Position numbers and translations under genes: made by a program. DNA of 64,000 bases from Polytrichum commune (lineage: Eukaryota > Streptophyta > Polytrichopsida > Polytrichales > Polytrichaceae), in NCBI GenBank assembly GCA_950295325.1, contig OX485806.1, forward strand, positions 5,828,001-5,892,000. Reading direction: 5' to 3'. Shown piece after piece: positions 11,308 through 60,340 of the stretch (position 1 is the first letter of the stretch; each line of letters opens with the position of its first letter). Below the pieces are notes generated by a model. It ran no database searches. It was given only the letters and a program-made list of their open reading frames with translations, and was not told the origin of the DNA.

Positions 11308-12303
11308 TACAGTCCTACCTCTTTAATACGACACTCGATAATACGACAACCTCGATATTATGACACAAATTTCGTAAACCAAACTTCCTAGTTCAAATCT
11401 ACCTCTATACTACGACTATGACAATGTTAATACGACACTCCTAGACCCCCCAAATGTCATATTATAGAGGTAATAAATGCATTTATATGGTGTGTCCCAC
11501 ACACTTATATATACATAAATACATAATTTATTTTAAATTCATAAATCTTATACATATGAAGTTTGGATTAAGGAAGTTTAAATGTAAAATGATGAAATAA
11601 ACATGAGAACCATGGGAACTAGGTTTTCTTTCTAAAACCCTACTCATGAGGACCAAAGAGAAAAATCGAGATTGATCAAGGAGTCCGAAGACCTGGCCCT
11701 TCTTATATCAAAACTGCAGCTTGGATCAGATGAGATGCCATTTGAAGAGTATGTGGTAATGGAAGGTGAAGACATCATTGAGGCTGAATATTGCATGTCA
11801 AAGCTGGTTGATATGGCCTTAGGACAAAGAATAGAGCCAGTTAGTTTGGACCTTACTGCTGAGACCGTAAACCCTTTAGATGTTGATGAAAGACCTCCAC
11901 CTATTGTGAAACTGACGGATGCTCAACAACATGCTCAGCTATTAGCTACATTTTTTATGGACAATTCATTAGACTTCACTCCCGCAAATATGATGAAATT
12001 GCAGGGCATAATAGAGAAGCTCAATAAGATATATGTTGCTAACTTGAAGTGGCAACATCAGCGGACTATTGATTCCTTCTTCAAGTCCACATAGGTTTAG
12101 TGAGGAGAATTTGCATATTTGTAATACATTTGAAAGAATACTCATTTTTACATATGGAAAAATATCTCAAGTGTGTTTTTATGAAGTACCTCGTTATTGT
12201 GACAACCAGGTCCAATTTGTCATATTATTGAATATGTGACACCTCGATAATACGACCTTTTTCTCATTTCCCAAACGTGTCATATTAAAGAGGTAGGACT
12301 GTA
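11308..12303. mobile_element. Pogo/Tigger-like element 1 (TSD TA)
   Basis: The left end at 11310 reads CAGTCCTACCTCTTTAATAC. The right end at 12301, reversed, reads CAGTCCTACCTCTTTAATAT. TA flanks both sides. Repeated CTCGATAATACGAC-type motifs lie near both ends, a pattern known in Tigger/pogo elements. The element is 992 bp and carries only the C-terminal part of a transposase. Confidence 0.92.
11672..12094 (+). pseudogene. Pogo/Tigger transposase C-terminal fragment (element 1)
   Basis: This 140-residue frame has no stop. It contains an acidic stretch (MPFEEYVVMEGEDIIEAEY), a helical ATFFMDNSLDFTPANMMKL segment and the ending HQRTIDSFFKST. From family knowledge, pogo/Tigger transposases end in an acidic linker and a TI.SFF tail after the DDE domain. 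The helix-turn-helix and DDE core are missing, so it is a deletion derivative. The frame is uninterrupted, unlike the copy in element 3. Confidence 0.8.
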
Positions 12304-26277: not shown

Positions 26278-27930
26278 TTATGGTGGGGGGTGGTTATATT
26301 GGTGGCCCATGATGCATAGTATGTCTAGTTTAAACCTAGCATTGGGGTGACATCTTTGGGCACCAAAAGTGCACAATAATAGCCATGTTGGTACGGTGTT
26401 ATCTTGAGATATTCCATTGTAGGTACATGCGTTCAAAAGTATGCAATGTCTTGATACTTTGCTTGCTATAAGGAGTTTACGTAGTTCCCATACAACTTTG
26501 TTGTGCCTTTTTGTTATTAAGACATGAATGTGTTGTTGTTTGCATTTAAGTAGTACATGTGGCCATGTATCTACGTCTAGTGAGTTACACACATGGCATG
26601 TTATTGATGGATTGCATTCTCTACCACATAAGAGTTGTTTACGGGGATGGCCCATATATTGTCCCGTTTGGAATTTGATTAGGCTTGTTATTTGTTTATT
26701 TGTAATAATTGGAAATTTTCATAAGTCGTGTGATAATACTATATCTATGTCTTCGTTTTCAAGCCATTTATATAATTGGTGTGTTTGGTTTGCTATAACT
26801 GCTAAGATATATATTTTTTCATATTTAAGGTTGTGTTTATCAAGGTGTCTAAGGGGGCCTTTGTTAGTGTTTCTTGCATTGTATGCCATTGGTCATTTTG
26901 GAGGTATTATGGTGTGGGGTGTGCTTGTTCATAAGGTGCTACAACATTTTTGTGGTCTAATGTGCATCCCTTCTTGGCTAGTGTGTATGCTTGTTCATTA
27001 CCATTGATGTTAGCATGAGCTTTGACTTTGCGGAGTGCGGAAGTTTGTGTGTGGGATCCTAACATTTGGGCTGTAGATTCAAGGATAGTTTTGTTTGGGT
27101 GGATGCTATGGATTGTGGGGTGCTTGATTTGGGTATTTAGTAGATATATGACATCGAGGCAATTTGTGAAAGTAAATCCTATTTTTTCACGTTTCCAATG
27201 TCCATTAGTTATTTCTTTAGGTGGTTTGAATGATTGGGCTGTGTAAAAGCATAATTGTGGCAGGTATTTGGGGAGTAGGCACCATTCTAGATTAGTATTG
27301 GGTGTTTGCAGGTATAGGTGGTGGGGCTTGTGTGAATATTGTGGGGAGTTGTAAGGTGTTGGCCATAGCAAACATTTGATGTGTAAATTCATCATATCCG
27401 ATGGGTGTGTTTTATGGTGTATGCAAAATATATGGATGGCATTATTTTATGGTATGGGTTCAATTTTCAATTATGGTGGGATTGTTGGTTCTTCGTAGGA
27501 GATAGTATTTGCTTTGAAATGGGTTATGACATGCGAGTTTGGAAAGGGACCGTCATGGGGATTGAAGTTGTGATACCAATTATAGTATGGGGTTATTAGT
27601 ATTATAACAATGTTTGGGTCATTTTTGGTTGTGAGATGTGCCTAGTGGAGAGCTTGTTGTGTTTCGTTTTCTGTATGTGGGTGGGCATATCCATTACCCT
27701 ACTGTTTGTATTGGAGGTATTCCTTATGATCGAAATATTATGTCTTTGGGGAATGGAGAGTAGAATTGTTTGAGAGTTGGAGGGCACATGCTACTAGTGA
27801 TGTGAAGTAGGAGTGTGTTCTTTGAAAGGAGTCAATGATGTGGTCAAGGATGACATTTGGAAGTCTATATTGTGAGAGTTTGAGGGGGTTGTTTTCGGGT
27901 ATTCTATATTTACATCTTTGGTACAACCAT
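26278..27930 (-). mobile_element. Decayed LINE fragment with RNase H and CCHC segments
   Basis: On the minus strand, 27395-26907 contains FTFTNCLDVIYLLNTQIKHP and then KVKAHANINGNEQAYTLAKK, which match the conserved D and KxKAHxxxxGNExAD motifs of RNase H; the usual D of QAD is Y here. 26655-26278 contains CHVCNSLDVDTWPHVLLKC (C-x2-C-x11-H-x4-C) followed by ITKRHNKVVWELRKLL, a typical LINE tail. 27926-27602 reads as worn sequence from the reverse transcriptase C-terminal side. Stops and frame changes show it is dead. The 5' part, endonuclease and catalytic reverse transcriptase motifs are absent. Confidence 0.78.
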
Positions 27931-31994: not shown

Positions 31995-34900
31995 TCAGAA
32001 CCAGTTCGAGGTTTCATAATCTCTGAAACCTCGCAAATAATTCTCCATGTTTTCTCTAGTGCGGTTCCACTGAAGATCACCAATCACCTCGTCCGGAGTA
32101 TGTCTCAGTTCCTGAAAAAGAAAAGAAACAATGACTCATGCCACAAATATTTCTCAGTAATTGAAATGTAAGCTCAAATGTTGAAACCCATGCATGCTGC
32201 AAAAGTAGGCGTGTGTAATGTACGAACCGAAGGTATAAGTTTAAAAGAAGTTCCGTCGTCGCGCACAATCAAAGTCTCCTCACTGCGATTCCGATACTTT
32301 CCAGTTTTAACCTCCACCTGGAAAATCCCATATCATAGTTAACTCTGGAATTCCAACATGGGTATAAGAAACTTTGAGCACCTTTTCATTTATTAAACAT
32401 ACACCTGTATGTGAGTGGTATATGGTTAGGTGTAGACCTAAGAATGAAACAACAAAAAGACATGTATTTACAAGAGATTGGACTATGTGCTAAAAAATTA
32501 TTAACCATTCTAGGCTCAACAGTCAACATAATTAGGGGACCTATATGATCATTTGATAAGAAATCCATATGAGCTCTGAAAATTGTGAGGAAAATGGCTA
32601 CTGTCTACTGGCATGATTTGGATTTGTTAACCATCTCGCACTTGTCCTACAAGAAGTCGGTGCAGAACGAAAAGTGTCTGATGAAGGCCCACTTACCCAA
32701 TGTCAAATTGTTTTTATCAGTTTCATAAGATAGAGCAAAAAGATGCCTAATGAAGAACTCCATATTTAAAAAGCTGATCTGATATTGGGTATATGGTGAT
32801 TTGAAGAATACCTTGACATCAGCTCTTCTGATTGACCTTGTGGTGGAGTCAATAACGTAAATCTCTTCAAAATCCAGAACAAAATTTTCATCATCTTCCC
32901 GGAGATTGCGATAGTGCTTGATTAAAAATACCTGTTAACCAATGTCGTCAAAAATTGAGATCAGATCAATTTAAGTAGAAAGGGAGAAAAGGTGTTTCAC
33001 AACCAACCAACATCCTGCACTTGCCAAATCCATCCACCAACAATCCCCTGATTAGATCGTCCCACTTCACTTTGCATTAGAGCTTGGGGCCTAAGGGAAC
33101 AAGGGAACAAGGAAGTTTGAAGGCATGGAAATATCTATATGGAGTCCTACACGACATGCAAATGGCTAACTTTTCATGGTCTACCAGATTTTGCATCAAG
33201 CCCACCTCAAACAGCGGGTCTAGGACAAAACAGACACTTCAAAATCTCACAAACCTTGATTTACTATAACTTATTGTGTAGAAGGGCCCAATGAAGAGAA
33301 TGGCAATGAGATAAGATTTGGTTGAAAGCCCAGTTGTGTATTTCGTTACATTACACTTAAAGTCCTGTGACCACACAAACTTGGACTTCAATTTTCAGAT
33401 GAGTTTCAGGGGCCCTCACAAAATTCAGTCACGGCCATTGGCTGTAATGTAGAGTGGCCCTTAGAGGTGATGAAGAAAAGCAAAGATGAAAGAAAAGTGC
33501 AACCATCTAGACCTTCAAGCACTGGCTTCAAGTGAATTTCCTAGGTGACTTATTTGAGCAAAAAATGCACACCTACCTTCATGGCTTGGTATTCAGTCTT
33601 GTAAAGAGGTGCACGTGGAGTATCAACTGGGGGCTCTGTGACTGAGATATATTCGTAATTGCTCTTCATGCACCGTAGTGGCTGCATAGATTCACAAAAC
33701 ATCTTTTACTTGAAGAAAGCAAACTTTCACAAATTGCAGAGTTTGCTAACAAGAAAATGCAACAGGTGCCAATCCCATGTATGGGAGGCTGACTGCTAGA
33801 CCTACCTGTGAATGGAACCTCAATTTGCAACTTTGAAGTTTTTATTACTTGGAAGCATAAAAAGCAGAACTAATCCCAATTTGGGTTGCTAAAATTTTGG
33901 TGGTTGCAATATGCCTATGCATGAATCAAGCCAGAAAAGAAACTATCATGGCTGTGCCATCTTAGATGTGCACATGTCAAACTTGTAATAGCAAAATTGG
34001 TAATTCACATCTTTCTACTCTTGACCTTTGATACAATGGATTTATGATCAAATACTCAGGAAAATCATAAAAGAGCACTCAAATTTGAGCCACAAAGGGT
34101 GTAATGAAATGGGCAACAAACGTACCTTCTTGGGCATGTTGCCAACTACTTTTGGGATTGCATAGGTGTCTGTATCAGGATTAGTTACATACATCTGTAC
34201 ACTCACAACACACAGGTGTTTCTTTCAGCATGACCTGGAAACGTTCTCTTACAAAATTTAGGTGTGCAAATAAAGACGTTAGGAACATTCCAGGACTGGT
34301 CGTTACTTGACCTTGGCCTTGACCTTGATGTTAATGTTTCTCAGCAATGAAGAAAAATCACAAGTTTGACAACATCTATGATTTCACAAGAATGACTTGA
34401 AAGTCAGTTGATTACAGACCAATGTCACTGAACTACACATTATTGCGGACATACATCACCCACAAATATGGAAATTAAGATATACCATCTGCAAAATTGA
34501 TCTTGCAGTAGGTTCTTCACCCTTGCCAAAAATGTCTAACCAGTATTTTTGTTGTTGTAAGTTCTTATTTACAAAATGGTTTTGGAGGCACACTGTTGCA
34601 TGATTGAGTAATTTACTGCAGCTTGAATGCCATATTTCCCTACTCCTACAAATTGGAGCCAGGGAACAGGCGGTCCCACATAGTAGGTACTGAAAAAGGA
34701 CACAAAAAACATGCTAGTATTTTTTATTCTCCAGAGACTGGTTGAATGGGTAGAATTAGAAGGGCAAAAGCAATAGTTAGACTTAGCAATAGTCAATCAA
34801 GAGGGCAATGTCAATCAAGAGTGTATTTTTTAGGAAAGAAATGCTCTCAAAAGACAATGAGTCCCCAGATGTTTGGACAAGAACCGTGCATAGAATACAT

Positions 34901-36738
34901 ACGGCTGGACATTGATGCATATATTTTGGAAATTGGAGCAGGGCCACATGCACAAAGCAATCACAAGTTACAAGAAAGGGACAGAAAAAATTTACCTCTC
35001 TAAAATCGAAGACATCATCATCTTGATCGGGGACTCTTCTGATGAAGAAATCACAGTCATACAAAGTGAGTTTATGGAACTCGTCTTCGTCAATTTTGTA
35101 GTCCACAATCCTTTCCTCCTCTACACCTTCAGTAGATATGAAGGATTCACTTTCTTGAACACCATACTCCCCCATGGGCATATCATATTCGGTTTCATAG
35201 TCGCGTAGGTCACCTTCATCATCATCCTCCTCATTTTCTCGATCCATCTCATAGTCCACGGCGTCTTCCACCTCAAAATCATCCTCGGCTCCTTGTATTT
35301 CTCTCCCTCGCCTTTGTTTTCGAGGTTTTAACCAACTTGGACTTTGAGTTAATGATCTAGGGAACGAAATCCTTGATGACGTAGCCGCCTGCTCTGACAT
35401 CAAATAAATAAGAAACAACCTAATAATAAAATGATATAGTACCACTGACATGCGGTGCTGTGTCTACAAAACCACTCTGCATTTCCCTGTGACCTTTGAA
35501 CCTATCCCTGGGTCCAAAACCCAGAACCTAAACCCTAAACCCTTTTTTGCATCTAGTCTCCACTATGACGCACGCAAGTTAAACCGTCAACCTCCCTCAA
35601 ATAGCATAAAAGACAACCAACAAAACCCTTCGAACTGTTTGTACCAACCAAATGCTCGCCACAGAATAAATTCAGAAGAATCTTAACCTTGGAAGAGGAT
35701 TGAGGCTTCACAAGCAGAATTTCCTTTACCAAAACCCAGAACCCTAAGCCCTAAACCCTTCTTTGATCTAGTCTTCGCTATGACACAAGCAAATTAAACC
35801 CTTACCCTCCCTCAAATAGCATAAAATGTGAACAACAAAATCTTCCATGATGCTTGTACCAACCATAAGCTCACCACAATAAAGATTCAGAAGAAGCCAA
35901 AAACCTTCAAAGAGAATTGAGGCTTTACAAGAATTGGCCAGAATTTCATTTGCCAAAACCCTAAACCCTTCTTTGAATCTAGTCTCTACTATGCCACAAG
36001 CAAGTTAAACCCTCACCCTCCCCGAAACAAATATAAAGCGCGACCAACGAAATCTTCCTAGCTGCTTGCACCAACAAAATGCTCGCCACAATAGTAATTC
36101 AGAAGAATCCTAACCCTGGAAGAGGATTGAGGCCTCACAAAAATTGACCAGAATTTCCTTTGCCAAAACCATAAACCCTTCTTTGCATTTACTCTCCACT
36201 ATGACACAAGCAAAGTTAAGCCTCACCCTCCCTCAAACAGGATAAAGTACGACCAACAAAATCTTCCTAACCACTTGTACTAACCAAATGCTCGCCACAA
36301 TAAAAATTCAGAAATAACCAAACCCTGGAAGAGGGTTCAGGGTTCACAAGAATTGACCAAATTTTCTTTTGCCAAAAAACTTAACCCTCCTTCAAATCTA
36401 CTCTTCTGGTCAAATAGAGTTCACCACACCTTATCTGGAAGTAGCGTGAGTTAATGGGATGCAAGAATGCAGACCTCACTTTACAATTGCCAAAAAATGC
36501 CAAATATTCAAAAAAATTCGCAACATTTCAGAACCTGTGCGAAGAGGCGCATGCCGCGGCGAGTTGCTAGAATGGCAGCTGCTCGGCCATGCTCTGGCCC
36601 CGGAGCTGACAACTTAGAAACAATTTTTACTTTGGCTGCAATTGGGCCCGCGCTCCTTCTCCTGCCGCTGAAGCTGCTGGAGGCTGCGAATTGACAGCTG
36701 CTAGTGTGAGCGCAGGAGGCGATGCTCGCCATAGCCAT
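31995..36738 (-). CDS. PTAC6: PTAC6/PAP8, plastid RNA polymerase-associated acidic protein (7 exons)
   Basis: Exons read 36738-36535, 35388-34996, 34194-34126, 33681-33577, 32931-32812, 32317-32228 and 32111-31995. All six introns are GT-AG and fall between codons (phase 0), giving 365 aa. Residues 1 to about 60 are Ser/Ala/Arg-rich and nearly free of acid, as in a chloroplast transit peptide. Residues 102-137 are strongly acidic (ENEEDDDEGD). The conserved part follows: YDCDFFIRRV (178-187), DFREMYVTNPDTDTYAIP across exons 2/3, VTEPPVDTPRAPLYK in exon 4, LDFEEIYVID in exon 5, and the terminal SNWF. From family knowledge these match PTAC6 (PAP8), a component of the plastid-encoded RNA polymerase complex needed for chloroplast gene expression; Arabidopsis PTAC6 is similar in length and also ends SNWF. 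The start is the first ATG after a GA-rich leader. Intron 1 carries a tandem repeat array, intron 5 a dispersed repeat, and a transposon nest begins 65 bp upstream. The identification is from memory of the family, without a search. Confidence 0.88.
32394..32645. repeat. Dispersed about 250-bp repeat in PTAC6 intron 5
   Basis: The stretch shares a diagnostic order of segments with other copies: an ACACCT-type start, a TTAGGTGTAGACCTAAGAAT-like block, AAAAAGACATGTATTT, GAGATTGGACTATGTGCT, then GAGCTCTGAAAATTGTGAGG. Related copies lie near 4495, 22405, 42170, 57960, 62560 and 62900, and in reverse near 20690, 23030 and 23370. No coding capacity or clear terminal repeat was seen. Confidence 0.6.
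35510..36400. repeat. Tandem array of about 210-bp units with telomere-like CCCTAAACCC, in PTAC6 intron 1
   Basis: The motif CCCTAAACCC or a one-base variant recurs at 35533, 35749, 35959 and 36169, with a weaker copy near 36379. Spacings are 216, 210, 210 and about 210. Each unit then repeats a segment reading TCTAGTCTCCACTATGAC, a CTCCCTCAAATAGCATAAA segment, a CCAACCAAATGCTCGCCACA segment and a GAAGAGGATTGAGGC segment. About four and a half units fill most of intron 1. The CCCTAAACCC core matches the plant telomere repeat, but only one or two repeats occur per unit, so this is an interstitial satellite and not a telomere. Confidence 0.85.
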
Positions 36739-36802
36739 GGCTCCCCAGCCTTCTCGTCAGTCTCTCTTCTCTTCTCTGTTCTTCTCTCTCCCTCTCCCTC
36801 AC
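36739..36802 (-). promoter_or_regulatory. Short GA-rich leader of PTAC6, truncated by a transposon
   Basis: On the minus strand the 64 bases before the PTAC6 ATG are GA-rich, typical of a plant 5' untranslated region. No TATA box is visible between the ATG and the transposon edge. The native promoter therefore either lies beyond the 5.3-kb insertion or the element now supplies it. This is inference. Confidence 0.45.
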
Positions 36803-37859
36803 TAAGGCCCACTTCACACACGAGCCAAGAGCCGTGACCATGAAAGTGTGAGAGCCCAAAAGAAAGTGTCCAGAGGCCGTCCCAAATCACTTCCAAAAAC
36901 ATGTAGTGTGGTCACGGGCCCTCAAGTGTAGTGTGAAGTTATATGTGAACGGCCCTCAACTATATGCTATTTCAATGAATTTTTATTTAAGCTGGGTCTT
37001 CACACATTATAAAATAAAACAAGAAAATAGTAGAACCGTGAGGCTCTGTCCTCTTATGAAAGAATACAATTGTAGTTGTACACTTTGCTCATGCCAGTCC
37101 ATGGCTATTTGTTGCACCTATAATCAACTATAGTCAATTAGATTTTTTTCAATACATTCTAGGAAATAATTATAGTTAACTAGATATATATAACTATAAT
37201 TAACTACATTCTTTGGCAGGTTCAATCACGATCAACTATAGTTACGAAAGGCAACTAGTTAACTACTAGTTGAATTAGTTGGTTAGTTGCCCAAGGTATG
37301 CAAGCTTGCATCATCCATGTTAGATCAACTTGACTAAAAATAGCAGGGACAAGTAACGTGCAAGTGTGAACATAAAGTAGTTAGGAATTTTGCTCTTAGA
37401 ACATAGAAGTTGATGCATAGTCTCTGTCCTACAGACAACGCCAATAAATTAACAGTTGTGAGATTTCGATGTGCTATGGTCTATCAAATTTGTATTAGGT
37501 CTACCTCCAAGAGATGGTTTTTGGAAACAATCTAAGTGACCATGAATATGATCCATTTGATGCCATGTAGCAATCCATGCAGACTTTACATTCATCTTGT
37601 GTTCACTTACTCCGTTGGTCCCTCAAGCATAGTGTGAAGCGAACTTGGATTGGCTCTGCCTTCCCAACCAATAAGGGCCGGTTTACACTACGGTGGAGAA
37701 GTCAACCGGTCATGAAAAAAAGGGCGTTTCTCAATTGTGATTGGTCGAAAATGCAACTCTTGACCGGTGGGTGTTTACATTAGGTGAAGAAAACAATGGT
37801 GGTGAACTTTTCTCATGGATGATAAAATGACATGGCCGCCTACATGGCGGCACTTTTTG

Positions 37860-37943
37860 GAGTTGGGCTTCTCCGGAGGAGGAGTTTCTTGTCCAGCCTC
37901 AAGAGGCCGGACAAGAAACTCCTCCTCCGGAGAAGCCCAACTC
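37860..37943. repeat. Perfect 35-bp inverted repeat (hairpin)
   Basis: The left arm 37860-37894 and right arm 37909-37943 are exact reverse complements over 35 bases, starting GAGTTGGGCTTCTCC and ending TTTCTTGTCC. The 14-base loop contains GCCTC/GAGGC, which extends the pairing after one mismatch. The arms are richer in G+C than the surroundings. It lies about 185 bp inside the left terminal repeat of the Harbinger-like element. Confidence 0.95.
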
Positions 37944-38224
37944 AATAAAAATTTAATTTTCAAAAACAGACCTTGACCGTAGATTTCAGATCTGATTTTT
38001 TTCAAAACCTAAGGTGTTGGCAAGCTTCTCTCTCTCTCTCTCTCTCTACTTCTTGAAAATCTGGTACTCTGATACACCAAATATGCTATTCCGGGCAGCC
38101 CGGTTAAAAATAAAAAAGAAAAATTACAATACAAAAGGCCGAAGGGTTCGGGGAAAGCAAGTATGTTCCTCTCCCACAGTGCTAGTCTGACAGCAGTTCC
38201 TCTACCACAGAGTTAGCAGTCCAG

Positions 38225-39428
38225 TACAGTCTAACCTTGATAATATCACACCATCCGTTTCACCATAAAGTGTGATATAAACAAGGTGTGACATGTTTGA
38301 TAATGTCACATTTTGAAGATTTGTGCATAATGTGATATTATCAAAAAAAAAAAGGTAGAAAATCAAAATGAAATTACAATGTAAAAAAACAAAAAAAACA
38401 AACACAAGACTTCAATGTTTTTGAATGTAAAATATAATTCAAAATTGTGAATAACAACATGAGCACATCACAATGTGTCATTGAGATCAGCCAATCACTA
38501 GCTTCCAATGTAGCAACAACAACAAAAACAACAACACAACGAAGAACACCTGCACTGCATGAAGAAACACAAGCCTATGATAGAAAGTGTGCATTTAAAT
38601 TCCAAATGAACAATGGTTCATTATATACAAGTGAGCTCGACCATGAGCTTGACTAACCTACCTAGGAGACTGTTTCTACTTATGAGCTTGACTAACCTAC
38701 CTAGAAGATTGTTTCTACTTATGAGCTTGACTAACCTACCTAGAAGATTGTTTCTACTTATGAGCTTGACTAACTAATCTAGAAGATTGTTCCTAATTGA
38801 ATGCCCACTTAGGATGAGCGGCTAACACTTATGATCTTACTAGATTCTCCTATGCGACTATTGACTATAGAAACAGTGAAGACCGTGCCACATATCTTGA
38901 GATTTCTACATTGCAAACCAATTGAACTAATTTAGCTTAAGTCGACACTACTCTGTACCAGCTCAGCTAAACCGTAGAACTTAACATCCTAAATTACTTC
39001 ACACAAGCTGAAACCCTCAAAGACACATAGGTGAACACATGTGACGGAAGGTGGGGTGCATAGAGGCCAAGAAGTCTTGGCAGCGCCGTCAAAGACAACA
39101 CCTTTGAGTGCCGTGTATAGACAGCACCGTTCAGGGTTGGTGCACAGAGGCGGCTCATGACCCTTTGAATAACATTGCATTTATCACAGGGGTGGCTCAT
39201 GACCCTTTTGGCTACTACAATATGTCCATCCAACCATCACATACAATCCATCCATATTTGATATTATCACATTTACACTACGGATTTTGGAAAAAAATAG
39301 TGACATTAACAAGGGTGATAGGGATAATAACGAGGGAGTTTTACACTAAGAAAATCGGTTTCAAACTTTTAGGTGACAATATCAAGGTGTCCCATTAACA
39401 AGGGTGACATTATCAAGGTTAGACTGTA
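38225..39428. mobile_element. Pogo/Tigger-like element 2, nested at the third level (TSD TA)
   Basis: The left end at 38227 reads CAGTCTAACCTTGATAATAT. The right end at 39426, reversed, reads CAGTCTAACCTTGATAATGT. TA flanks both sides. The element is exactly 1200 bp. TA duplications and CAGT-starting ends followed by repeated GATAATNTCAC motifs are typical of the pogo branch of Tc1/mariner elements. No transposase remnant was recognised inside. It carries a four-copy 39-bp tandem repeat. Confidence 0.85.
38645..38800. repeat. Four tandem 39-bp repeats inside pogo-like element 2
   Basis: GAGCTTGACTAACCTACCTA starts at 38645, 38684 and 38723, with a diverged copy at 38762, so the period is exactly 39. 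Each copy ends in GTTTCTACTTAT or a near variant. There are no unique spacers between copies, so this is a plain minisatellite. Confidence 0.93.
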
Positions 39429-39429
39429 A

Positions 39430-41090
39430 ACAGAGACAGGATATGGGGACTTCCCGTCTGTAGCTGCTTATCGAAGTACTGAGATTGTTCGAGTGAAGGA
39501 TAGCTTGATTTCTGATCAGACTTAGCAGGAGTACTGAAGTGAAGCTACTGTATCATCCACAGTAAGCACAGTATCGGTAGCAACTACTGATTTACTCCGA
39601 GGGAACAGCAGAAGACAGGAATTCGTGAGAAGTGGTTGAGTAACGGATTGAATTGTCCATTCTGATCATTAAAAGAACCTCATAGGTTCAAGAATTCACA
39701 GCAAGATGAGCACACCCAACTCATCCAAGGACGAGCTCAAGGTGGCAATTATGTTTTGTTTTTTCTAAAAACAAATCATGGTCAAAATGGTTCGGTCACA
39801 TATGAATGCTTGATATATATTTGAGATTTTACATATGTGAAATAATTCATATGGATATTTTAATATTTCCATGCTATATAAGTAGATAAAAAAGATATTT
39901 ACCTATTCCAAGGATGAAGTATAGCCTTGTTGACATCGATAACAAGTAAGAGGTCTTGTGACACCTGTTGTACGCTCTACTAACACTTCTTGTAATTGTG
40001 GGGAGCATGGGCACAGGTGAGGACCTCTTCTACAAGTGCTATGCACCATTCGAAGAATTGTCTACTCATGAATAATTCCCCAAGAAAATTGTTCTTGAAA
40101 TATGGAATACTTACTACGAGTATATCTTTCTTGGAAAAAACAGTATCTACTATATACATTTTGACTGATAAAATACCCGATATAAGGGGATCTGAATTCT
40201 TTGTTATAGCTCAAAAACGCTACGCAGATATTGTGGATAATTCTCTGCTGAAATGCAATTTCCAATAAAACAGACAGGACAATATATGATCTGCTATTTT
40301 TCTTTTATAGTATACGGTTGATGGACGTCTGAGACAAGTCCTCACCGATAAAGCAAATAACCAGATGAGAGTAAGGATGGGGGGTAGAGGAAAAAGGTAC
40401 TTAGGATTTCCCCTAAGTCCTCATATGGTGACCACCTGACTGACTGAAGTCAGAAGTTATGACTACTAATAAATTGGTCAAGTCTTTCTCATACTTTCAA
40501 ATGACTGTATTCAGTAGGCACAAAGTGACAATAACAAATGTCTATTAAAGTGTGCAGACATGCTAATCAATGTGTAGCAAGTCTGAGAGGAAACTAAAGA
40601 TGCAAAGGATAACACATAGATCTGTGCAACTATTGCCGATCTACAAATAGTTCAGAAAAATATCTGTGATAGAATTTTTACACACATACTTGGTACAAGA
40701 ATGTGGTAACAAGCTGCTATAGTCAGGAACGAAATTACGGATTTAATGCTTTTATAAAAGCTTCTTACGACAAATGGCTGGATTCTGACACTTGAAAATG
40801 AAGTAACTACCATTTGAGTCTAGGGGTCACCTGTGCTCGCAGAACAACTTCTGTTGATCAAGGTACAGATTAAAACATCACAAACCTCGGTAGTGACCAA
40901 GAGTGTTACCAAGGAAGGACAGAATGACGTCCGGCTCTAAAAGAATGTAAGAAATGAAGACATAAAGTACCAAGGGATTATCAGGACCCTATTCAAAATG
41001 GGATGTATGTTGTCATTACATAACCTGACTCTACAAGAGGGATGAAAGATCCTACTCTAACAAAGAGAATAATCATGACAAGATTGGTCA
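39430..41090. other. Harbinger-like element interior, no recognisable gene
   Basis: AT-rich interior. The longest open frame (39996-40268) has no recognisable motif and is best treated as chance. A CT run at 41093-41108 borders the candidate exon that follows. Confidence 0.5.
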
Positions 41091-41155
41091 GCTCTCTCTC
41101 TCTCTCTGCTGTAGTAGCTCCTTAGCGATTTTTTTTTGTGCAATTTTTTTTCGCA

Positions 41156-41515
41156 ATGGCTGGTTACTCACAATTTCAGTTTGGTAGTAGCCAAGATGAG
41201 GACGACCTCATTGGTAGTGAGAATTATTTTGAGCCCTCAAGGCAATTTCCAGGAAGTGCTCTTAGGGCTTATGTTCAACACCCTTCTCCACTTGCAAGGA
41301 ATTTGAGGGAAGAGTTTGAAGGAGGAAGAGAGATAGAGGAAGAGAATGATGTAGAAATTGTGGAACGGCCGATTGAGACCACAAGGAAGAGAGGTCCAAT
41401 AGCAAAGAAGAAAGCTCCGGCCAAGAGGAGAGCCAAGAGGAGAAACGATAAAATACTTCAAAACCATAAAGATCATAAGAGAGCACAAAATCTCTCTTCT
41501 TCGATTATCCATGAT
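41156..41515 (+). CDS. Unrecognised basic open exon within the Harbinger-like element
   Basis: This 120-residue open frame starts MAGYSQFQFGSSQDEDDL. It has an acidic middle (REIEEENDVEIVE) and a Lys/Arg-rich segment (KKKAPAKRRAKRR) that could be a nuclear localisation signal. A CT microsatellite and a short T-rich stretch precede the ATG. Its position in the element and its acidic-then-basic layout would fit the first exon of a Harbinger accessory DNA-binding protein, but I do not recognise the family and no Myb/SANT helix is visible. The start could also be 18 bases upstream at 41138 (MQFFFAMAG). Confidence 0.35.
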
Positions 41516-42092
41516 TGAAGATCAAAGATAAGAAGAGAGAAATTGATGAGGATGATTAAGAGGAGAGCATGTCTTAAATAATACCAAAGAGTAGTGCTTG
41601 TCCAATGTGTATGGGTTTTCCCCTCTTCATTCTTAAACACCCAAGGAGACATTTATTTCCTACATGGGCCAAACTTGACAATTGGCAATTTGGCAATTTT
41701 CATTATCTTTTGAATAAAATTGAACATTATATTACACAATTCTTATGAACACAATTCTTGTTGAAATCTTTTGATACAATGTGAATGTAGAGAATTATGG
41801 TTTTTTATCACAAAAAATCTTCACCATTAGGTGAACTTCTCTTCACCGGTGGACTTCTCTAGTGGACTTCTCCTCTAGGTGTTTAGACTTCAACCGGTCA
41901 AGACTCCTTAAGAAATATTTTATTGCCTTTAATTCTTCTCCGGCACATCCACCATTTGCCTCATATAACCATGTCTTGGCCAAGCATTCTTGACCGACCG
42001 GAGGCCTTCTCCACCGTAGTGTAAACCGACCCTAAGAGTGCTTGAAGTGCAATGGTCACATGCCCTCAATGTCGTGTGTGGAGTGGCCCTAA

Positions 42093-42935
42093 GACTCACT
42101 CCATGCAAGTTTTCTTTCTTGCTAGTGTGTGGTGTTACGAATATAAAAGGTATGCAAGTGTTATTTTGGTTACTTTTCTTAGTTGAACACCTTTATTTGA
42201 TTGGTGTGTCGTTAGGTGAGGATCCAAAAACGAACACCATAAAGACACATGTTTAAAAGAGATTGGACTACGTTTTTAATGTTTATTCATTGCTCCACTC
42301 AATTGCGAGGACATATGTATTCATTTGAGGAATAAATAATAAACATGCACTTATGATAATCGTAACCAAAGTAGGGGAGCTCTGATTTACAATATGTTTT
42401 TTGTTGATACTTCACAGTAGATTTGCTAATGCAACATGAAGTTTGACATGTAGATCTAGTGAATGGGTAAAAGATATAGAAAAACGAACATACCGTATGG
42501 GTGAACTAGACTTTTTTTTAGGTTTCTACTTATGTAGAGGGTTGATTACAAAATGAAAATTACATGGCATATTAGCAAATTCGAATGAGGACATGAGAAT
42601 TGATCTAGCTTTTTGGGAATCGGTGTGAAAAGATGGATTCTTGATCTAATGAATGTCATAGATGATTTACACTAGTTTCCTTTTGGATATATACATGGTG
42701 GTATGAATTTCTAGAGGCCGGGCCAATTTGTTGTACGTGTAAGAGGCTTGAAATCCTCACTTGTGATTAGTCAAAATGTTGAAATCGGCCCCAATCCCTT
42801 TACACTCAGAGGGTGGGCCAATTTGGTGGTATGAAATTTTTAATCAAAATATGCATGGTCTGAAACAGCCTGAGCTCATTGAATTGGGTGCACCCAAAAT
42901 GGAAGGCCAATTCTTGGCCTCACAGCCAATGTCAG

Positions 42936-43435: not shown

Positions 43436-44268
43436 TACAATCCACCCTCTATAAATGTTACACCTATAAGTGTTCACCCTCTCTAAATGTTAACTTTCTT
43501 CTACTCCCCACATATTGCACACTATAAATGTTAAACATGTTAACTGTTAACAAAATGATACTTCCTTCTTTGTAAATTTTACTCTATAAATGTCAACGAA
43601 TGAAATACAACCATAATATGAATGATAAAAACTACACATCCAGTTACATTCCTCTCTCTCTCATCATGCGTTAGACTAAGTTTGGCTACTAATAGTTCTA
43701 GTGATGGAAGTTTAAGAATGGAGGCACAAGAGTATGTGCAATACGAATTAAACTTTGATTTGAACAATCCATATGAGGTCACCGAAGAGGATGTATGGGA
43801 TGTTTTAGGCTCTATTGGTGGGACTTCTAATGTCTAAGATGATGATTGTGAGGGAGAGGAGTGAAAGGTGGAACCCATTCCATCTTATAGTGACTTGCAA
43901 TCTAGTTTTGGTACCATTAGAAGGTACATGGAATCACGTTCATGTGATGTGTCCAAGTAAGTGGGTTTGTTGGTGCAGATTGAGAAATATTTGCAAGTTG
44001 TGCATGCAGATGAATCTCACCAAAGAACCATTGATTCATACTTCACCCGTGATTTGTAAACTTGATATTGAATAAAGTTTTGATTGGGTTTGCAATTTTA
44101 TGAATGGTATTCTCTCACAAGGACTCTTCACAATTGCTTATATTTATAAATGTTAAGATTTGTATATTGCTCAAAATAGTAATTTTATAATTGTTAATTG
44201 TTAACACCTCTATAAATGTTAACTTTGATCCACTCCCGAGGGTTAACATTTATAGAGGGTAGACTGTA
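43436..44268. mobile_element. Pogo/Tigger-like element 3 (TSD TA)
   Basis: The left end at 43438 reads CAATCCACCCTCTATAAATG. The right end at 44266, reversed, reads CAGTCTACCCTCTATAAATG. TA flanks both sides; length 829 bp. CTCTATAAATGTTAAC-type motifs repeat near both ends. It encloses a stop-riddled transposase C-terminus. Confidence 0.82.
43622..44059 (+). pseudogene. Pogo/Tigger transposase C-terminal remnant (element 3)
   Basis: One frame runs through the element with three in-frame stops (43835, 43862, 43958) and no frameshift. It has an acidic stretch (EVTEEDVWDVL, then DDDCEGEE) and ends HQRTIDSYFTRDL. The ending QRTIDSYF closely resembles that of element 1 (QRTIDSFF), and a TI(D/T)SFF-type tail is characteristic of pogo/Tigger transposases from family knowledge. 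The catalytic DDE core and DNA-binding N-terminus are absent, so it cannot be an active transposase. Confidence 0.7.
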
Positions 44269-44422: not shown

Positions 44423-44927
44423 TTAGGGCCACTTCACACATGAGACTGAGAGCCCATGTCCAGTACACTTCAAGCACTCTCATTGGTGGGAAAGGCAGAG
44501 CCCGTCCAAGTTCACTTTGCACTATGCTTGAGGGACCAACGGAGTATGTGAATGAAAGATGGATGTAAAGTCTACATGGATTCCAACATGGCATCGAATG
44601 GATAGTGTTTCATGGTCACTTGGATTATTTTCAAAAACCACCTTTTGGAGGTAGGTCTAACACAAAACTGGGAGACCAAGGCACTCCAAACACTCAAAAC
44701 CGTTGATTTATTCTATTTTATCGTGGGTGAGGACCCACATGAATTAAAATTCATCGAAATAGCATTTGATTGAGGACCCGGTCACATATGACTTCACACT
44801 ACACTTGAGGATCCGTGACCACACTACATGATTTCGGAGGTGTGTTGGGATGGCCTTTGGACACTTTCTTTTGGGCTCTCACCATTTCATGGTCACAGCT
44901 CTTGGCTCGTGTGTGAAGCGGCCCTTA
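44423..44927. mobile_element. Short Harbinger-like element, 499 bp (TSD TTA)
   Basis: The left end at 44426 reads GGGCCACTTCACACATGAG. The right end at 44924, reversed, reads GGGCCGCTTCACACACGAG. TTA flanks both sides. It is the intact relative, in opposite orientation, of the outer element upstream of PTAC6. They share the GGGACCAACGGAGTA segment and the AAGAAAGTGTCC segment near the end. Confidence 0.85.
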
Positions 44928-53102: not shown

Positions 53103-56100
53103 TTAAAACTTCCCAAGGAATTTTTTGTGAGGATCCCGGTAACATGTCGTAGGGTCCACTCCTACCAGAGTTTCATCGTGATTATCCATGTGCTGACCAA
53201 CCTCGGGGGGGATACCTTCACACTTGTTTTTCGTCAAAGCTGCGAGTACGGTGAGAGCCGCTTGGTCTTGTCTATGGTTACTTCTGTCGGACCCATCTGG
53301 TGCTATACATTGCCTTGTAAGAGAGCACAGGTACCACGGGCGAACCAGTTCTTTGTACCTGCAAGAACATGGCTTCAAAATATGTAATTTGATTGTTCTT
53401 ATTTTAGGGTTATAAGGGCAGTTCAAGGCTTGGAACCTATACATCATGTAAATTATATATATCTGCAATTCAATTAGTGCAGAATACCATTTTGGAATTA
53501 TGTAGTCCCTATAAGTTAATGTAAGTTTTAACCACAAAGTTTTGTTAGGTTTCTAAAGTAAATAACATCTATTTCTGTTGTAGTTGCGAATGATTCCATC
53601 CTCAGTAAACCGGTTCTTTGTACCTGTGAGCACCTTTGTTTCAAAATGTGGGACTTGATTGTTATTCAAATTCTGTAAAGTTCAGATATGTAGATATATT
53701 TCAACATGTGGATTATCAAATGAAATTATGTGGTGCTATAACCTTTTATAAAGAATACCACTTTCAAGTATTAAAGTTATGCTACATTCTCTGAGGTGCA
53801 CAATATATATTCGTGTTGTAGTTGTAAAAAATTGTTTCTCAGTAATAAATCACAACACTTTGTAATTGCAAATGGTAATCTGCACTGATTGAAAGACAAG
53901 GTGTAGCTAGGTACTACAAGCATGACAGATTATTTTGCCAACACATTATTGTTCTGATGAGCAAGGATGGATTTTGGACCTTTTCAATGTGAAGCCTATC
54001 GAGGAGCCATCACAATTGCTCTGCGACAAGTCAATGGTTGATGCCCGGAGGAATTGAAGCTGAGCTGGAAATGTCCAATCCTTAATTGAACCGCTGGTTG
54101 CTCTGGAAGCAAATCCATGCTGGGAAGTATAATCCAAAGATTGTACGAGGGATTGGGTGGTCATGTACCTGCATCCAGCATCTTGCCAAAGCACAAAACC
54201 CCTCTCCACTAGAACTCTGTGTATCATGATGGCCTTCCATGCGTATTCCCCTGCACCCATGGATCCATCCACACCATCATCAATTATTAGATTGATCCAA
54301 CACATTGAATTCGAATCGGAGGGTTTCGTTGACAGTTACACTAATAATGCCCAAACCACACAGCCATAAAGCAAGGGATTTCTTCTTCCTCTAGGATGGC
54401 AACCTTGTTGGCATCATAAAGGAAAATGTCCGATGAAAATGTATCTCTTTTCCAATTCTTAGCTTTTTTTCGTCATTTCTTCATAAGATTTTTGGGCACT
54501 ACTTTGCCATGTAATCATTCTAACACAAAAGATTCTCAAACCTGAAACCCAAAAAAACAAAAGTATTGATGCGTCATCGAGGCCACAGCATCGCCCTTCC
54601 TGTCTCATGTGGTAGCTACTACTTGCCCCTCTTAACCAATGAATGCTCTCATGTTTACAAATCTACACTAAATATGATATTTAGTGTCACCAATTCTCAT
54701 TGTCTTGCTCAATACTAATTGTAAATCGCAGTATAGTGCCACCAAAAGTAGATGTGAACCCAACAATATTTTTCATTCCTTGTAATTTTTGGGGGGATTA
54801 TGGATTTACAGTGTTGCAATTATTGTCACTTACCAAGTGCTTTTCCATCCAAACCCCAATCATCCATGACAATATATTATCACAAGTTGCTGACAAGAGA
54901 AGGTTTGGTTTTGGCCAATGGTTGAACTCATCCATCATCCATGATAGCATTTGTTCACTTATTCATAAGAAGCGTCATCTGAAACATTACCATGGTGGCA
55001 TAAAATACCATATGGCACTAAACATCATATTTAGTGTAGTCATGTGGTTTGCTTTTCTCAACTGCAGCGGTAATCTGAAACCTGTGCTCATTGCAAAGGG
55101 AATCACAATGGCCCACACCTATTGTAGCATGCAACATTACATTACTTACAATCTAGACAAAAGTGGTCGCATGGGCTGCCATGATAGGTAGGCGGAGGTG
55201 AGAACAACGTTATGGTTGACTGTAATTTTGGTCTTTTTTGTTGTTTTTTATATTGAACTCTTCATTTTTGAAGGCCCATGTTTACCATTATTAGCCCATA
55301 CAAGTTGTTGGGGCTCTAGCTTTGTGCCTTCAGCTCAATGCATGCATTGTAGGCAGCATGTGTAGTAAGCGTGGGCAACATACCCGGGCCTCATGTGCCT
55401 TGGCCTTCTGTACAGCTTGGGTTTTGGTGACCTTGCATGATTTTTTTCACGATCATTACAAGTACAATTGTTTCGTTTTGACATCTCCCTGCCCTTCCAA
55501 AATAGACAATGGATTTAACGAGGGAATGAAATCAATAGATGGAGCAGATTCTGAGGACAGAAACTTGAGAGCATGTGTCTCCTAGTCACCCAAGAGTTTC
55601 AGTGTCCTGCATTCAACCGGGAACGCAAAGATATCGAACTTGTGTACCTCGGTTTGCATGTCTACTGTTGGCAAATCAATTATCTTGTTACCCTTCTTGG
55701 GCTTGTATGGTTCCATTGCGCGTGCCCTCAGAGTTTCCCCTTTCCTTCTTAATCTCTATTTCAGGCTCCGGTGATCATGTATGATTTTTTGGCAATGAAA
55801 TAAAACTGTTTGATTTCATAACATTATTCAACGTTATGGGTTTGTTGTGTGGGTCCTAGGAATTGAATCATGGGATGTGAAAGCCTCCGCACGGTGACTC
55901 AAGATTCAGATTGAGCTCCCAGCATCCCATGGTTATATTTCCATGACCCCCAACGCTGAAGAATATTATGTTCTCACCTCCACAACAACAAAAATAAGAA
56001 TATTGGATTGAGTGCGGGGATGAAATAAAACTGATGGAAAGAATTATTGTGAGGAAAGGATTTATGAACCTGTGCCTCCCATCCACCCGAGAGCTTGATT

Positions 56101-59100
56101 GATCCGCATCCAGTCGGGGAGCGCGGAGAAATCGAATTCGCGAACCTCGGCCTGCACGTTCCACTTGAGGTTGAGCTCCCTCACCACGCACCGCAAATCG
56201 TCCGCGTCTGCGCCCCTAAACTTTTCCATCGCCCACACCACGACCGATGGCACGCGGAAACCACTATTACTTCTTCTTCCAGGGCTAGATTGATTCAAGC
56301 TGCTCATCGTCCGGGCTTCTTGGACCGCTTTTCCGATCGAGCGAAGGAAGAGCAGCCCGCTCGGGAGATGGTTGCTGCTGAACCCTGTCACTATGGTGGG
56401 CCGAACTTTGCTTGCCCGTAGTTTCGGCGGCTCGTCTCTCGGATCCGGAGTGTCCAGGTCCACAATGTGAGTGTTCTCCAAATCCGTGGCCAAATTGTTC
56501 TCTGTTTGTGTGAGGTACCGCCTCGTCCTCCCTACCACCGTGTCTTTGCAACGCACCTAAGGTTCCACAACTACCAATGTTAGAGAATGTTTTGTAGAGA
56601 GTGAGAGAGTGAGAGAGAGCATTGACGTCAACTTGCATGTGGTTGAGGTAAATGAGAGATGCTTTACCCATTAGTATAGACTTTGTTTGTGGGTACATAT
56701 GTAAACCCGGGATGGGTAAATTCACGGAGCTAAACTTTAAGCGGAGTCCTACTCCTGCTACCTCGTGTTGGAGGTGGTGTCTTTTTTGAAAGCATTTTAA
56801 AGTTTGTTCAGTCGCTTGGTTCATTGCTACTAGTTGTATCGGCCCCTCGACCATGTCAAAGCAGTTTTGCAAAAGGCAACAACAACGAGGGAATGCATGG
56901 ACACATCATGATCAGAGTGAAGTAAGTTTTCCTTGACTCGGGCCATGTGCCAGAAGTGCAAACTTGCGATGATCGCACTCTTGAAGAGGAGAAGTCCTCT
57001 TGAAGAAGGTTGTTGCTCTCTTATGTGTATGTGCATAACTGCATGCTACCATTTCTCAAGCATTGAAGTCATGCTGCGATGATCGACCTACATGGATGAC
57101 TGGCCTACCTGTGTACTCAATTGCCTTCCATTCTTGAGCATTTAAGTGATGCGGCAAGTGGCCAACTTTTGAGTCATTTTTAGCTACTCGCTAAATTACA
57201 TTATCCTCATACAATAGGTTCCAAGTTCACCCGCAAGTGATGCTTCCTCAAATGAACTGATCACCAATGGGAGATGATAGAGTTATACTTTGATTCAACC
57301 GGAGTTTTGGTTGGGAGTTGGTTGTTTTGCAGAGGTCAAAACTTTTCATGTTCAGTGAGTTCCGGTGCATGTTTTGAGTCGGTGTGGAGGTTTGAACGAA
57401 AAACAATCCATATAGGTTCACTGCCAACCAAACACATTGAACACCTCTTGAAATGCCAAAATGAGTTTGGCCCTCAATGAACCGACATAGATTGTTCTTT
57501 GTTCAACCCTCCACACCGACTCCAAACATACACCAAAAACCTCCCAAACATGACAAGTTATTGTATCCAAAAAAACCAACACCCAATCAAAACTCCAGTT
57601 GAATTAAAGGATTATTCTTATATGTCCCATGTGTTTCTTTACTTCACCTCTACTTCTTGTGCCCCCATTTCAAAAAGCCCCAGCTCAAAGAAAGAGAGAG
57701 ATCAATCCCACATGTACTAAAGAAAAGCTATGAAAGCACGGAAAAGGGATAAGCATGCTAGCAAAAGGTCATCCATTCCAAAATCAATATGACTCCCAGC
57801 TTGTTGTTTGCAGTGAAGCGATCAAATACACTATACTAAAAACTATAGTGTCCAAACAACCAATTTGAGATATTGCATGAGATATATATAGTAAATAAAT
57901 ATAGCATTGTGTGTAATTATAATAGTGAGTGACACTAAATATGATATTTAGTGTACTAATAAGATTGACATGCCTAATTTGATTACTTGCTCAATCAGAC
58001 ACCTATGTTTGAGTTGTTAGGTGTGGATGCAAAATTGGACACCAAAAAGATGTGTGTTAAAAAAGACGAGACTGTCTTCTCAAACTCCATAGTCATCAGA
58101 ATTGGGGGGCCCAAAATGACCACTTAATGAGTACGGAAATATCCACTTTGATAGTGAATAAGATATTCATATGAGCTCCAAAAGTTGTGAGGAAAGTGGG
58201 TACGGCCTAGATTTGGATTTGCTAGCCATCGCGTATCCATTGCATGCACTTTACAAAGTGCATGGAATACTTACAAAGTTTGGTATATTCTGCATCATAA
58301 CATTTGTGTACTAAAACATTGTCATGGACAATTGAAATTTGGATGAAAAATCACTCAGTAAGTGATGGCGATTGCACCATTGTAAATCTATAGTGCCCAA
58401 ATCGTTTTACAAATGACAAACAATGTTAGGTTTACATGTAGTGTTGGTGACACTACATGGGCAGTTTACAATTAGTATCGAGCAAGACAAACATAAGATC
58501 ATTCAAACATAGAAGCTTGTCCATAATCCTGAGCACTTTTCGCGAATCTCTCCCAGGATCCACACCTGGGGGACTAACTCAGGCTGAATCTGAGAGCTTT
58601 TTCTGGTGACAGGGTGTGTTGTTTGAACAGAGTGCACCATCTGAATAATGTTATGATTACAATTTGTGACACTAAATACAACATTTGGTGTGATTTTCAA
58701 GGAGGAGGAGAAGAAATTAGGAGGAAATCATGTGTGAAGATTGTACCTGGGACGTGTTGATGAGCATCTTCTGTTGGATCTGGGTGGTGTTCCAACACTT
58801 GGCCTCTGATCCCAGTGAGTCCCGAACCATCTTGCAAGCAATATCGGAGTAATCCACCGAGACGCAAACTGTGGCCCCAGCCCTCAACCTTCTCTTCAAC
58901 CTCTGAACCTCCTGGAAAAGCCTGGGGAGCAGAGTGAAAGGCAGATTCTCCTTACTGGGTGCTTGAAATTTAGTTGAATCTCCGACTCTCATCACAAGGC
59001 ACACGTCAAACTCCATAATTTCTACCGGAGCCAGAGATAGACCTGTGATCTGTGCTATTTTGATGCCTACAGGATAAGCTGTGAGGGCGTAGAGAGCGGC

Positions 59101-59235: not shown

Positions 59236-59260
59236 GGTGGGTTAACTTGCTGCAAATTAA

Positions 59261-60340
59261 ACTTCTACCGAGATGTCCAGGGTGATGAATTCATAAGCTG
59301 CCGACGAGCATGTGATCACATGACCACAATTAAGGTGTTCCTGCTTGAATGCTCTTTGCAGATACCTTCCAGAACCCAATTCTGAGGGAAGAAGTTACTA
59401 TACTAAGAATTTCCTGCTCGGCCGAATTGCTTCCTAATGATGGCCTGCAAAGTTCTACCGACAAATCCAGGGTGATGAATTCATAAGCTGCCGATGAGCG
59501 ATTGATCACATGACCATAATTAATGTTTTCCTGCTTGAATGCTCTCTGCAGATAGCTGCCAGAACCCAATTCTTAGAGAAGAAATTACTATGCTAAGAAT
59601 TTCCTGCTCGGCCGAATTGCTTCCTAATGATGGCCTGCAAAGTTCTACCGACAAATCCAGGGTGATGAATTCATAAGCTGCCGATGAGCGATTGATCACA
59701 TGACCATAATTAATGTTTTCCTGCTTGAATGCTCTCTGCAGATAGCTGCCAGAACCAAATTCTGAGAGAAGAAACTACTATGCTAAGAATTTCCTGCTTC
59801 GCCGAATCACTTCCTGACTTTGACCAGTAAAGTTCTGTCGAGATATCCAGGGGGGATGAATTAGCCGATGTCAGATGAGTATGTGATCACATGCCCATAA
59901 TTGATGTTTTCCTGCTTGAGAGCTCTCTGCAGCTAGCAACCACGCCAAAATTCTAAGGGAAGAAACTAAAATAAGCAAAGAATCTTCCCGATTGGCCGAA
60001 TTGCGCCCTAAGTTTGACCTTCAAAGTTCTGTCGAGATATCCAGGGTGATAACTTCATAAGCTGCGAGAATAAGCCGATGACGAGCACGTGATCACATGA
60101 ATAACCATAAGTTTGCTGCTTCAAGCCGGCACTCATGGAAGCAGGAAAATTAGCAGCACTGCAGCCGAAGAAAGTAATTTGACCCAAACGCCCTGGTTTT
60201 GAGCTCCACCTGTGCCGAGACATCCAGGGTGACAAAGATTCAAGGAATAAGGTGCAAGAAGCCAGTGATGAGAATGTCATCACAGGGGCGTCATCTTTTT
60301 CCTGCTTCAGGACTGGCATGACCCTGATTCTTAGGAGAAG
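59261..60340. repeat. Satellite array of about 190-bp units upstream of the glycosyltransferase-like gene
   Basis: TTCTACCGA or TTCTGTCGA starts units near 59263, 59453, 59643, 59833 and 60027, with a weaker sixth near 60202. Spacing is 190, 190, 190, 194 and about 175. Each has ATCCAGGGTGATGAATTCAT, AAGCTGCCGA, GATCACATGACCATAAT, TTTTCCTGCTTGAATGCTCT and AAGAATTTCCTGCTCGGCC. Units 2 and 3 are almost identical. The array starts 26 bases upstream of the first possible start codon at 59235, so it forms the leader or promoter. Confidence 0.93.

What the first reader, a model, noticed from the sequence alone, without database searches (positions are those of the whole stretch)
36739..42092. Three-level transposon nest in the PTAC6 promoter
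A Harbinger-like element inserted at TAA 65 bp upstream of the PTAC6 start codon, was then split by a second Harbinger-like element (TAA duplication), which was split by a 1200-bp pogo-like element (TA duplication). All three duplications are readable, so the order of insertion is fixed. The gene's native promoter has been displaced by 5.3 kb or replaced, yet all seven exons remain intact, suggesting the gene is still expressed.
Basis: partly seen in the sequence, partly recalled or inferred. Interest (0 to 1): 0.75.

Follow-up and report, generated by a model that had tools for sequence, protein, structure and literature searches.

The report
Five nested transposons upstream of PTAC6
Just upstream of a plant chloroplast gene, five mobile elements have landed inside one another in a readable order; this kind of nesting is ordinary in plants, though one of the five appears to home in on CT-repeat DNA.

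Summary
Genome copies show it was under-counted: five elements, four deep. A, an old ~0.5-kb Harbinger MITE 64 bp upstream of the PTAC6 ATG, holds R (432 bp, unclassified, no TIR) and B (Harbinger, ~1.0-1.4 kb). B holds X (1.84 kb, in B's CT repeat); X holds P (pogo-like, 1,200 bp). Uninterrupted relatives were found for each inner junction. PTAC6/PAP8 is intact: seven phase-0 exons, 333 aa. A and R are old; B, X and P recent. Promoter takeover is unproven. A start upstream of 36841 puts an out-of-frame ATG ahead of, and overlapping, the PTAC6 start, so transcription probably begins in the native 64 bp or the last ~35 bp of A (inference). 'Native promoter displaced by 5.3 kb' is doubtful: the DNA next to the nest resembles old repeat. 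Nested DNA transposons beside plant genes are a known kind of thing. Least ordinary is X: all four known copies lie in (CT)n, without TIRs. Only three genome searches were answered, so X's copy number and the source transposases stay untested.

The parts
31995..36738 (-). PTAC6/PAP8 gene, 7 exons (36738-36631, 35388-34996, 34194-34126, 33681-33577, 32931-32812, 32317-32228, 32111-31995), 333 aa
   Evidence: all exons a multiple of 3, GT-AG, phmmer E=7.4e-87 to PAP8 8qma_K
36739..36802 (-). 64-bp GA-rich segment between the ATG and the outer TAA; probable native 5' leader
   Evidence: in the 0.31 Mb compared, 36601-36768 had no match; 36769-36829 (CT-rich outer part plus the start of A) did, in up to 9 sources, and those rows were not inspected
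36803..36805 (.). TAA target duplication of A, left
36806..42089 (.). Element A: outer PIF/Harbinger-type MITE (about 0.5 kb without insertions), TIR 16/18
   Evidence: uninterrupted copies including window 44426-44924
37017..37448 (.). Element R: ~432-bp repeat inside A, no TIR, hairpin near one end (boundaries +/- 4 bp)
   Evidence: site empty in 6 of 6 other A copies aligned
37672..37674 (.). TAA target duplication of B, left
37675..42032 (.). Element B: PIF/Harbinger-type, 996-1,374 bp in 20 two-ended copies, inserted in A
38027..38049 (.). (CT)n of B, left of X
38050..41091 (.). Element X: 1,838 bp without P, inserted in the (CT)n of B (edges +/- 10 bp because of the repeat)
38225..38226 (.). 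TA target duplication of P, left
38227..39426 (.). Element P: pogo-like non-autonomous element, 1,200 bp, TIR CAGTCTAACCTTGATAATATCAC
39427..39428 (.). TA target duplication of P, right
   Evidence: empty site GTCCAGTAAACAG in L042-L044
41092..41110 (.). (CT)n of B, right of X
41153..41518 (+). 121-aa open frame in B, no Pfam match; possibly a remnant of a Harbinger ORF1 (guess)
42033..42035 (.). TAA target duplication of B, right
42090..42092 (.). TAA target duplication of A, right

Best explanation
A nest of five elements with no transposase found in them grew in the upstream region of an intact PTAC6/PAP8 gene. Shown: Harbinger MITE A lies at a TAA 64 bp from the ATG; R and B entered A; X entered the CT repeat of B; P entered X at a TA. 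Shown by private substitutions: A and R are old, while B, X and P are recent. Inferred: PTAC6 has long used a promoter whose proximal part, beyond the last 64 bp, is MITE A (later A plus R). Transcription starts in the native 64 bp or the terminal ~35 bp of A. The later B-X-P block begins 936 bp upstream of the ATG and mainly pushes distal sequence away.
For: TSDs and TIRs read directly. Related empty sites: R absent in 6 of 6 other A copies aligned; B site uninterrupted in the window copy and L044; both arms of B adjacent or nearly so at the X site in 10 of the 15 B loci compared (15 of 26 fetched; the other 5 lack one or both sides), seven of them read through the (CT)n; P site empty in 3 of 3 X copies. 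TSDs: B 20 of 21, P 25 of 25, A 4 of 6. Private substitutions: A 11.6%, R 3.5%, B 0.55% (right arm only), X 0.8%, P 0.33%. Upstream ATGs at 36902 and 36841 overlap the PTAC6 ATG out of frame. Gene intact.
Against: There are no transcript, chromatin or allele data. The empty site for A itself was not seen, because no relative species was available. Upstream ATGs lower translation but do not forbid upstream starts, and a leader intron could remove them. B and X private rates (0.55% and 0.8%) are not ordered with nesting depth, and rest on few copies (8 and 4). Two of six A copies and one of 21 B pairings do not show matching duplications. Most genome searches did not complete.
Confidence: 0.6

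Rival explanations
1. Promoter takeover: MITE A, possibly with R, supplies the PTAC6 core promoter, with starts inside the element.
For: Beyond 64 bp upstream everything as far as 42092 is TE. A TATA-like TATAAC at about 36943 on the gene's strand lies in A; the 6 other A copies aligned read GTCATATGTG, GCCATATGTG or GTCATGTGTG there instead of GTTATATGTG. MITEs creating new starts are known: OsPT1 in rice (PMC12902297, abstract and one section read).
Against: A start about 30 bp from that TATA-like site is followed by the ATG at 36902, which opens a 91-aa out-of-frame ORF across the PTAC6 ATG; 36841 opens another of 46 aa.
Confidence: 0.2
2. Transcripts start beyond 42092 and splice across the nest in a long leader intron.
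For: Leader introns are common in plants (recalled).
Against: Of the AGs in the 350 nt before the ATG, those with at least 9 pyrimidines in the preceding 15 nt lie at 37053, 37051, 36921 and 36890; none lies downstream of both overlapping upstream ATGs. This is a crude filter. The DNA at 42098-42489 is itself repeat-like.
Confidence: 0.08
3. The allele is weakly expressed or silenced by the nest, and the coding exons simply have not decayed because B, X and P are recent.
For: B, X and P are recent. The intact exons cannot separate recent silencing from expression.
Against: PAP loss is albino and sterile in Arabidopsis (PMC8954402, passages read), so a null allele would need a second copy. A paralogue search was not run.
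Confidence: 0.1
4. Assembly artefact.
For: Repeats are hard to assemble (general knowledge).
Against: The A-B and X-P junctions carry precise duplications, and each inner junction has matching uninterrupted copies elsewhere in the genome.
Confidence: 0.02

Closest known systems
PIF/Harbinger (Tourist-type) MITEs
   Same: A and B: 3-bp duplications, mostly TTA/TAA; GG(G/C)C TIRs; short; repeated; no transposase seen. mPing is described with TAA and TTA duplications (PMC2836001, passages read)
   Different: The transposase source was not found (search not answered); A and B TIRs differ from each other
pogo superfamily (Lemi/Tigger-like) non-autonomous elements
   Same: P: TA duplication 25 of 25, short TIR beginning CAGT; 1,633-bp relatives carry an extra ORF related to one in another CAGT-ended element
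   Different: No DDE domain seen here; PMC7386202 (passages read) reports land-plant pogo only as Lemi in 23 eudicots, and the host here is not identified
SaTar / Micron / TAFTA microsatellite-targeted elements
   Same: X: 4 of 4 known copies flanked on both sides by (CT)n; X (1,838 bp) is near the upper end of their size range (PMC5907723, abstract and passages read)
   Different: X shows no TIR and sits in CT, whereas SaTars are predominantly TA-flanked MULEs, mostly with TIRs (the passages name TIRs for only three of the five rice families), and no SaTar was seen interrupting another
Single MITE insertions in plant 5' regions (rice OsPT1)
   Same: TE within or next to the 5' leader of an intact gene (PMC12902297)
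   Different: Here five elements are stacked; no expression data

Membership tests
PIF/Harbinger (A and B) | 3-bp target duplication, mostly TTA/TAA | tested here: met
   B 20 of 21 two-ended copies, 18 of them TTA/TAA, one TCA, one TGA; A 4 of 6; both window copies
PIF/Harbinger (A and B) | terminal inverted repeats starting GG(G/C)C | tested here: met
PIF/Harbinger (A and B) | mobilised by a DDE_Tnp_4 transposase plus Myb-type ORF1 | not tested
   PF13359 genome search did not complete; B's 121-aa frame has no Pfam match
pogo superfamily (P) | TA target duplication | tested here: met
   25 of 25 full-length loci, own copy included
pogo superfamily (P) | short TIRs (40 bp or less) | tested here: met
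   22 of 23
pogo superfamily (P) | DDE_1/CENP-B type transposase in an autonomous partner | tested here: inconclusive
   a 1,633-bp relative carries a 129-aa ORF, no Pfam hit, 32% identical over 106 columns to an ORF in another CAGT-ended element of the window, E=4e-9 for the single comparison; genome protein search not answered
SaTar / microsatellite-targeted MULE (X) | flanked on both sides by a microsatellite | tested here: met
   window, L042, L043 (short left run of about four CT units), L044
SaTar / microsatellite-targeted MULE (X) | terminal inverted repeats (most, not all, SaTar families) | tested here: not met
   self-comparison finds no end-to-end inverted repeat
SaTar / microsatellite-targeted MULE (X) | some copies with 8-11 bp target duplications | not tested
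   only 4 copies known; further search not answered
PTAC6/PAP8 | full-length similarity to solved PAP8 | tested here: met
   residues 35-333, E=7.4e-87

The most novel reading that the evidence does not exclude
X is a recently mobile, TIR-less element that inserts into (CT)n/(GA)n microsatellites, a class apart from the mostly TA-seeking MULE-derived SaTars. One possible route: a PBS-like stretch near one end (close to TGGTATCAGAG, motif recalled) suggests that linear or circular retroelement DNA was pasted in through GA-repeat homology.
Probability: 0.25. Interest if true: 0.5.

Novelty: new member of a known kind. Interest (0 to 1): 0.3.

Why it matters
The locus gives an ordered insertion history, with uninterrupted relatives for each inner step, beside a chloroplast gene whose loss is albino in Arabidopsis (PMC8954402, passages). 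It is a natural test of how much native upstream DNA such a gene needs, possibly as little as 64 bp. It also turns up a candidate CT-repeat-targeted element and a very recent burst of a pogo-like family (mean pairwise difference 0.54% in 25 copies chosen as best matches).

Tried and rejected
Considered and rejected: that the 432-bp stretch present in longer P relatives is R (it does not match R; it carries an ORF); that the middle element is one 3.2-kb Harbinger (split it into B and X); that R is a TIR element or SINE (no TIR; no duplication beyond what A-rich flanks allow); that X is a full LTR retrotransposon (no direct terminal repeats). Led nowhere: Rfam (0 matches); Pfam on B's open frame and on the P-relative ORF; a literature search for the PAP8 promoter (one paper); dating in years (no rate known, host unnamed). 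The host may be a moss with about 7 large chromosomes; that is recalled inference from contig sizes and 58% PAP8 core identity to Sinapis (126 of 217 columns), not tested.

Full report
WHAT WAS CHECKED. The sequence at 36739-42092 was read directly and scanned for repeats. The TIRs match in 16 of 18 (16 of 22 over a longer stretch), 33 of 38 and 22 of 23 positions. Eight random sequences with the window's neighbour frequencies gave no such pair at any of the three thresholds; in the real window the TA test also matched at 11308/12302, 54664/57954 and, between A copies, 37608/44545.

THE GENE. PTAC6/PAP8 lies on the minus strand from 36738. A seven-exon model, with every exon a multiple of three and GT-AG borders, gives 333 aa and matches solved PAP8 chains over residues 35-333 (E=7.4e-87). 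A saccharopine-dehydrogenase-like gene starts divergently at 46899 (read; PF03435, E=1.6e-17 for its first 149 aa), so the two genes share about 10 kb between them.

THE NEST IS DEEPER THAN REPORTED. The window belongs to a 408-Mb plant genome that could be searched. Only three genome searches were answered. They show five elements. The outer element A has an uninterrupted 499-bp relative in the same window at 44426-44924 (minus strand, TTA duplication). A-family matches occur in 10 of 68 sources held (67 loci plus the rest of the window; loci chosen for other repeats). A 432-bp repeat R interrupts A at about 37017-37448. Seven other R copies share its ends but not its flanks, and the site is empty in all six other A copies aligned. 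B entered A: the same place reads CCAATGAGAGTGC, without an insert, in the window copy of A and in L044.

Of 26 B loci fetched, 15 were compared: in 10 the left arm (to 38041-38053) and the right arm (from 41092) lie adjacent or a few tens of bases apart; in the other five one or both sides of the site are missing. Nine B copies were printed at the site; seven could be read, all through an uninterrupted or slightly varied CT repeat, and two gave no output. Three copies of X without P exist (98.1-99.5% identical by segment), and their P site reads GTCCAGTAAACAG. In all four X copies known, window included, both edges are (CT)n, although (CT)4+/(AG)4+ runs number only 51 in 313 kb of the sequence held. 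X has no terminal inverted repeat and no direct terminal repeats. P has 24 other full-length copies among those returned as loci, all with TA, mean pairwise difference 0.54%; the search scored only 40 of 898 candidates, chosen as best matches, so the true spread may be larger.

AGES. Private substitutions against relatives: A 55 of 475 (six relatives; 49 of 476 with two), R 15 of 428 (seven), B 5 of 902 (seven, right arm only), X 15 of 1827 (three), P 4 of 1200 (24). A and R are old, and B, X and P are recent. B being lower than X goes against a strict rate-with-depth order. With 5 and 15 differences, and only three relatives for X, it is not a contradiction, but it is not support either.

HOW IT PROBABLY WORKS. 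Only 64 bp separate the ATG from the outer TAA. Twenty ATGs lie in the leader strand between 37700 and 36739. Two, at 36902 and 36841, open frames that run out of frame across the PTAC6 ATG. Productive transcription therefore most likely starts at or below about 36841, in the native leader or the end of A, with A as the proximal upstream DNA. A TATA-like TATAAC at 36943 was noticed in the window copy, while the six other A copies aligned read differently there, but a start from it would run into the 36902 ATG. The DNA beyond the nest (42098-42489) matches repeats at 62-77% in 8 sources, under permissive scoring, most matches lying in 42143-42303, so a clean 'native promoter' pushed 5.3 kb away is not visible. 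The outer, CT-rich part of the 64 bp (from 36769) also fell under matches that run into A, which were not inspected. None of this is transcript evidence.

COMPARISON. A and B meet the DNA-level tests of PIF/Harbinger, and P those of pogo; the transposases were not found because the searches did not complete. X behaves like microsatellite-targeted SaTar elements but shows no TIR, which most though apparently not all SaTar families have (PMC5907723, abstract and passages). PMC7386202 (passages) found land-plant pogo only in 23 eudicots. If this host is not a eudicot, the three CAGT- or CAAT-ended families in the window (38227-39426, 43438-44266, 11310-12301) would extend that range, but host identity and their transposases are untested. 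One literature search pairing pogo with Physcomitrella, DNA transposons and Harbinger gave four papers, seen as a listing only. [quoted passage not shown] One search for nested insertions in promoters gave 254 papers with three of five terms, eight listed, none opened for it.

VERDICT.

Noticed in passing
44426-44924 (-), TTA 44423-44425/44925-44927: Second, uninterrupted 499-bp copy of element A, between the nest and the divergent gene.
   Followed up: yes
43438-44266, TA 43436-43437/44267-44268: Another pogo-like element, 829 bp, TIR 22 of 26 (CARTCYACCCTCTATAAATGTTA), with a frame ending ...HQRTIDSYFTRDL read by eye.
   Followed up: partly
11310-12301, TA 11308-11309/12302-12303: Another CAGT-ended TA-flanked element (CAGTCCTACCTCTTTAATA); its ORF 11636-12094 is 32% identical to the ORF in a longer P relative.
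   Followed up: partly
54666-57953, TA 54664-54665/57954-57955: TA-flanked inverted termini CACTAAATATGATATTTAGTGTCAC, each end itself palindromic, 3.3 kb apart.
   Followed up: no
35514-36392: Tandem array of about four 209-bp units inside PTAC6 intron 1; similar arrays at 6444-7343 (302 bp) and 59259-60065 (190 bp).
   Followed up: no
L002-L008 and window 37017-37448: R copies end in a hairpin whose stem differs on both sides among copies (CTTTGTC/GACAAAG in L002, L007, L008; CTCTGTC/GACAGAG in L005, L006); it is imperfect in the window copy, L003 and L004. Flanks are A-rich with no clear duplication.
   Followed up: partly
L055: Pieces of A lie on both sides of a B copy with its own TAA duplication, but about 0.4 kb of other sequence separates them on one side; possibly another, different nest.
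   Followed up: partly
26907-27446 (-): Weak RNase H match (E=0.0046, below the Pfam cut-off), perhaps a LINE remnant.
   Followed up: no
37854-37949: 47-bp inverted repeat, 94% complementary with a 2-nt loop, inside B's left arm; only partly matched in some B copies.
   Followed up: no
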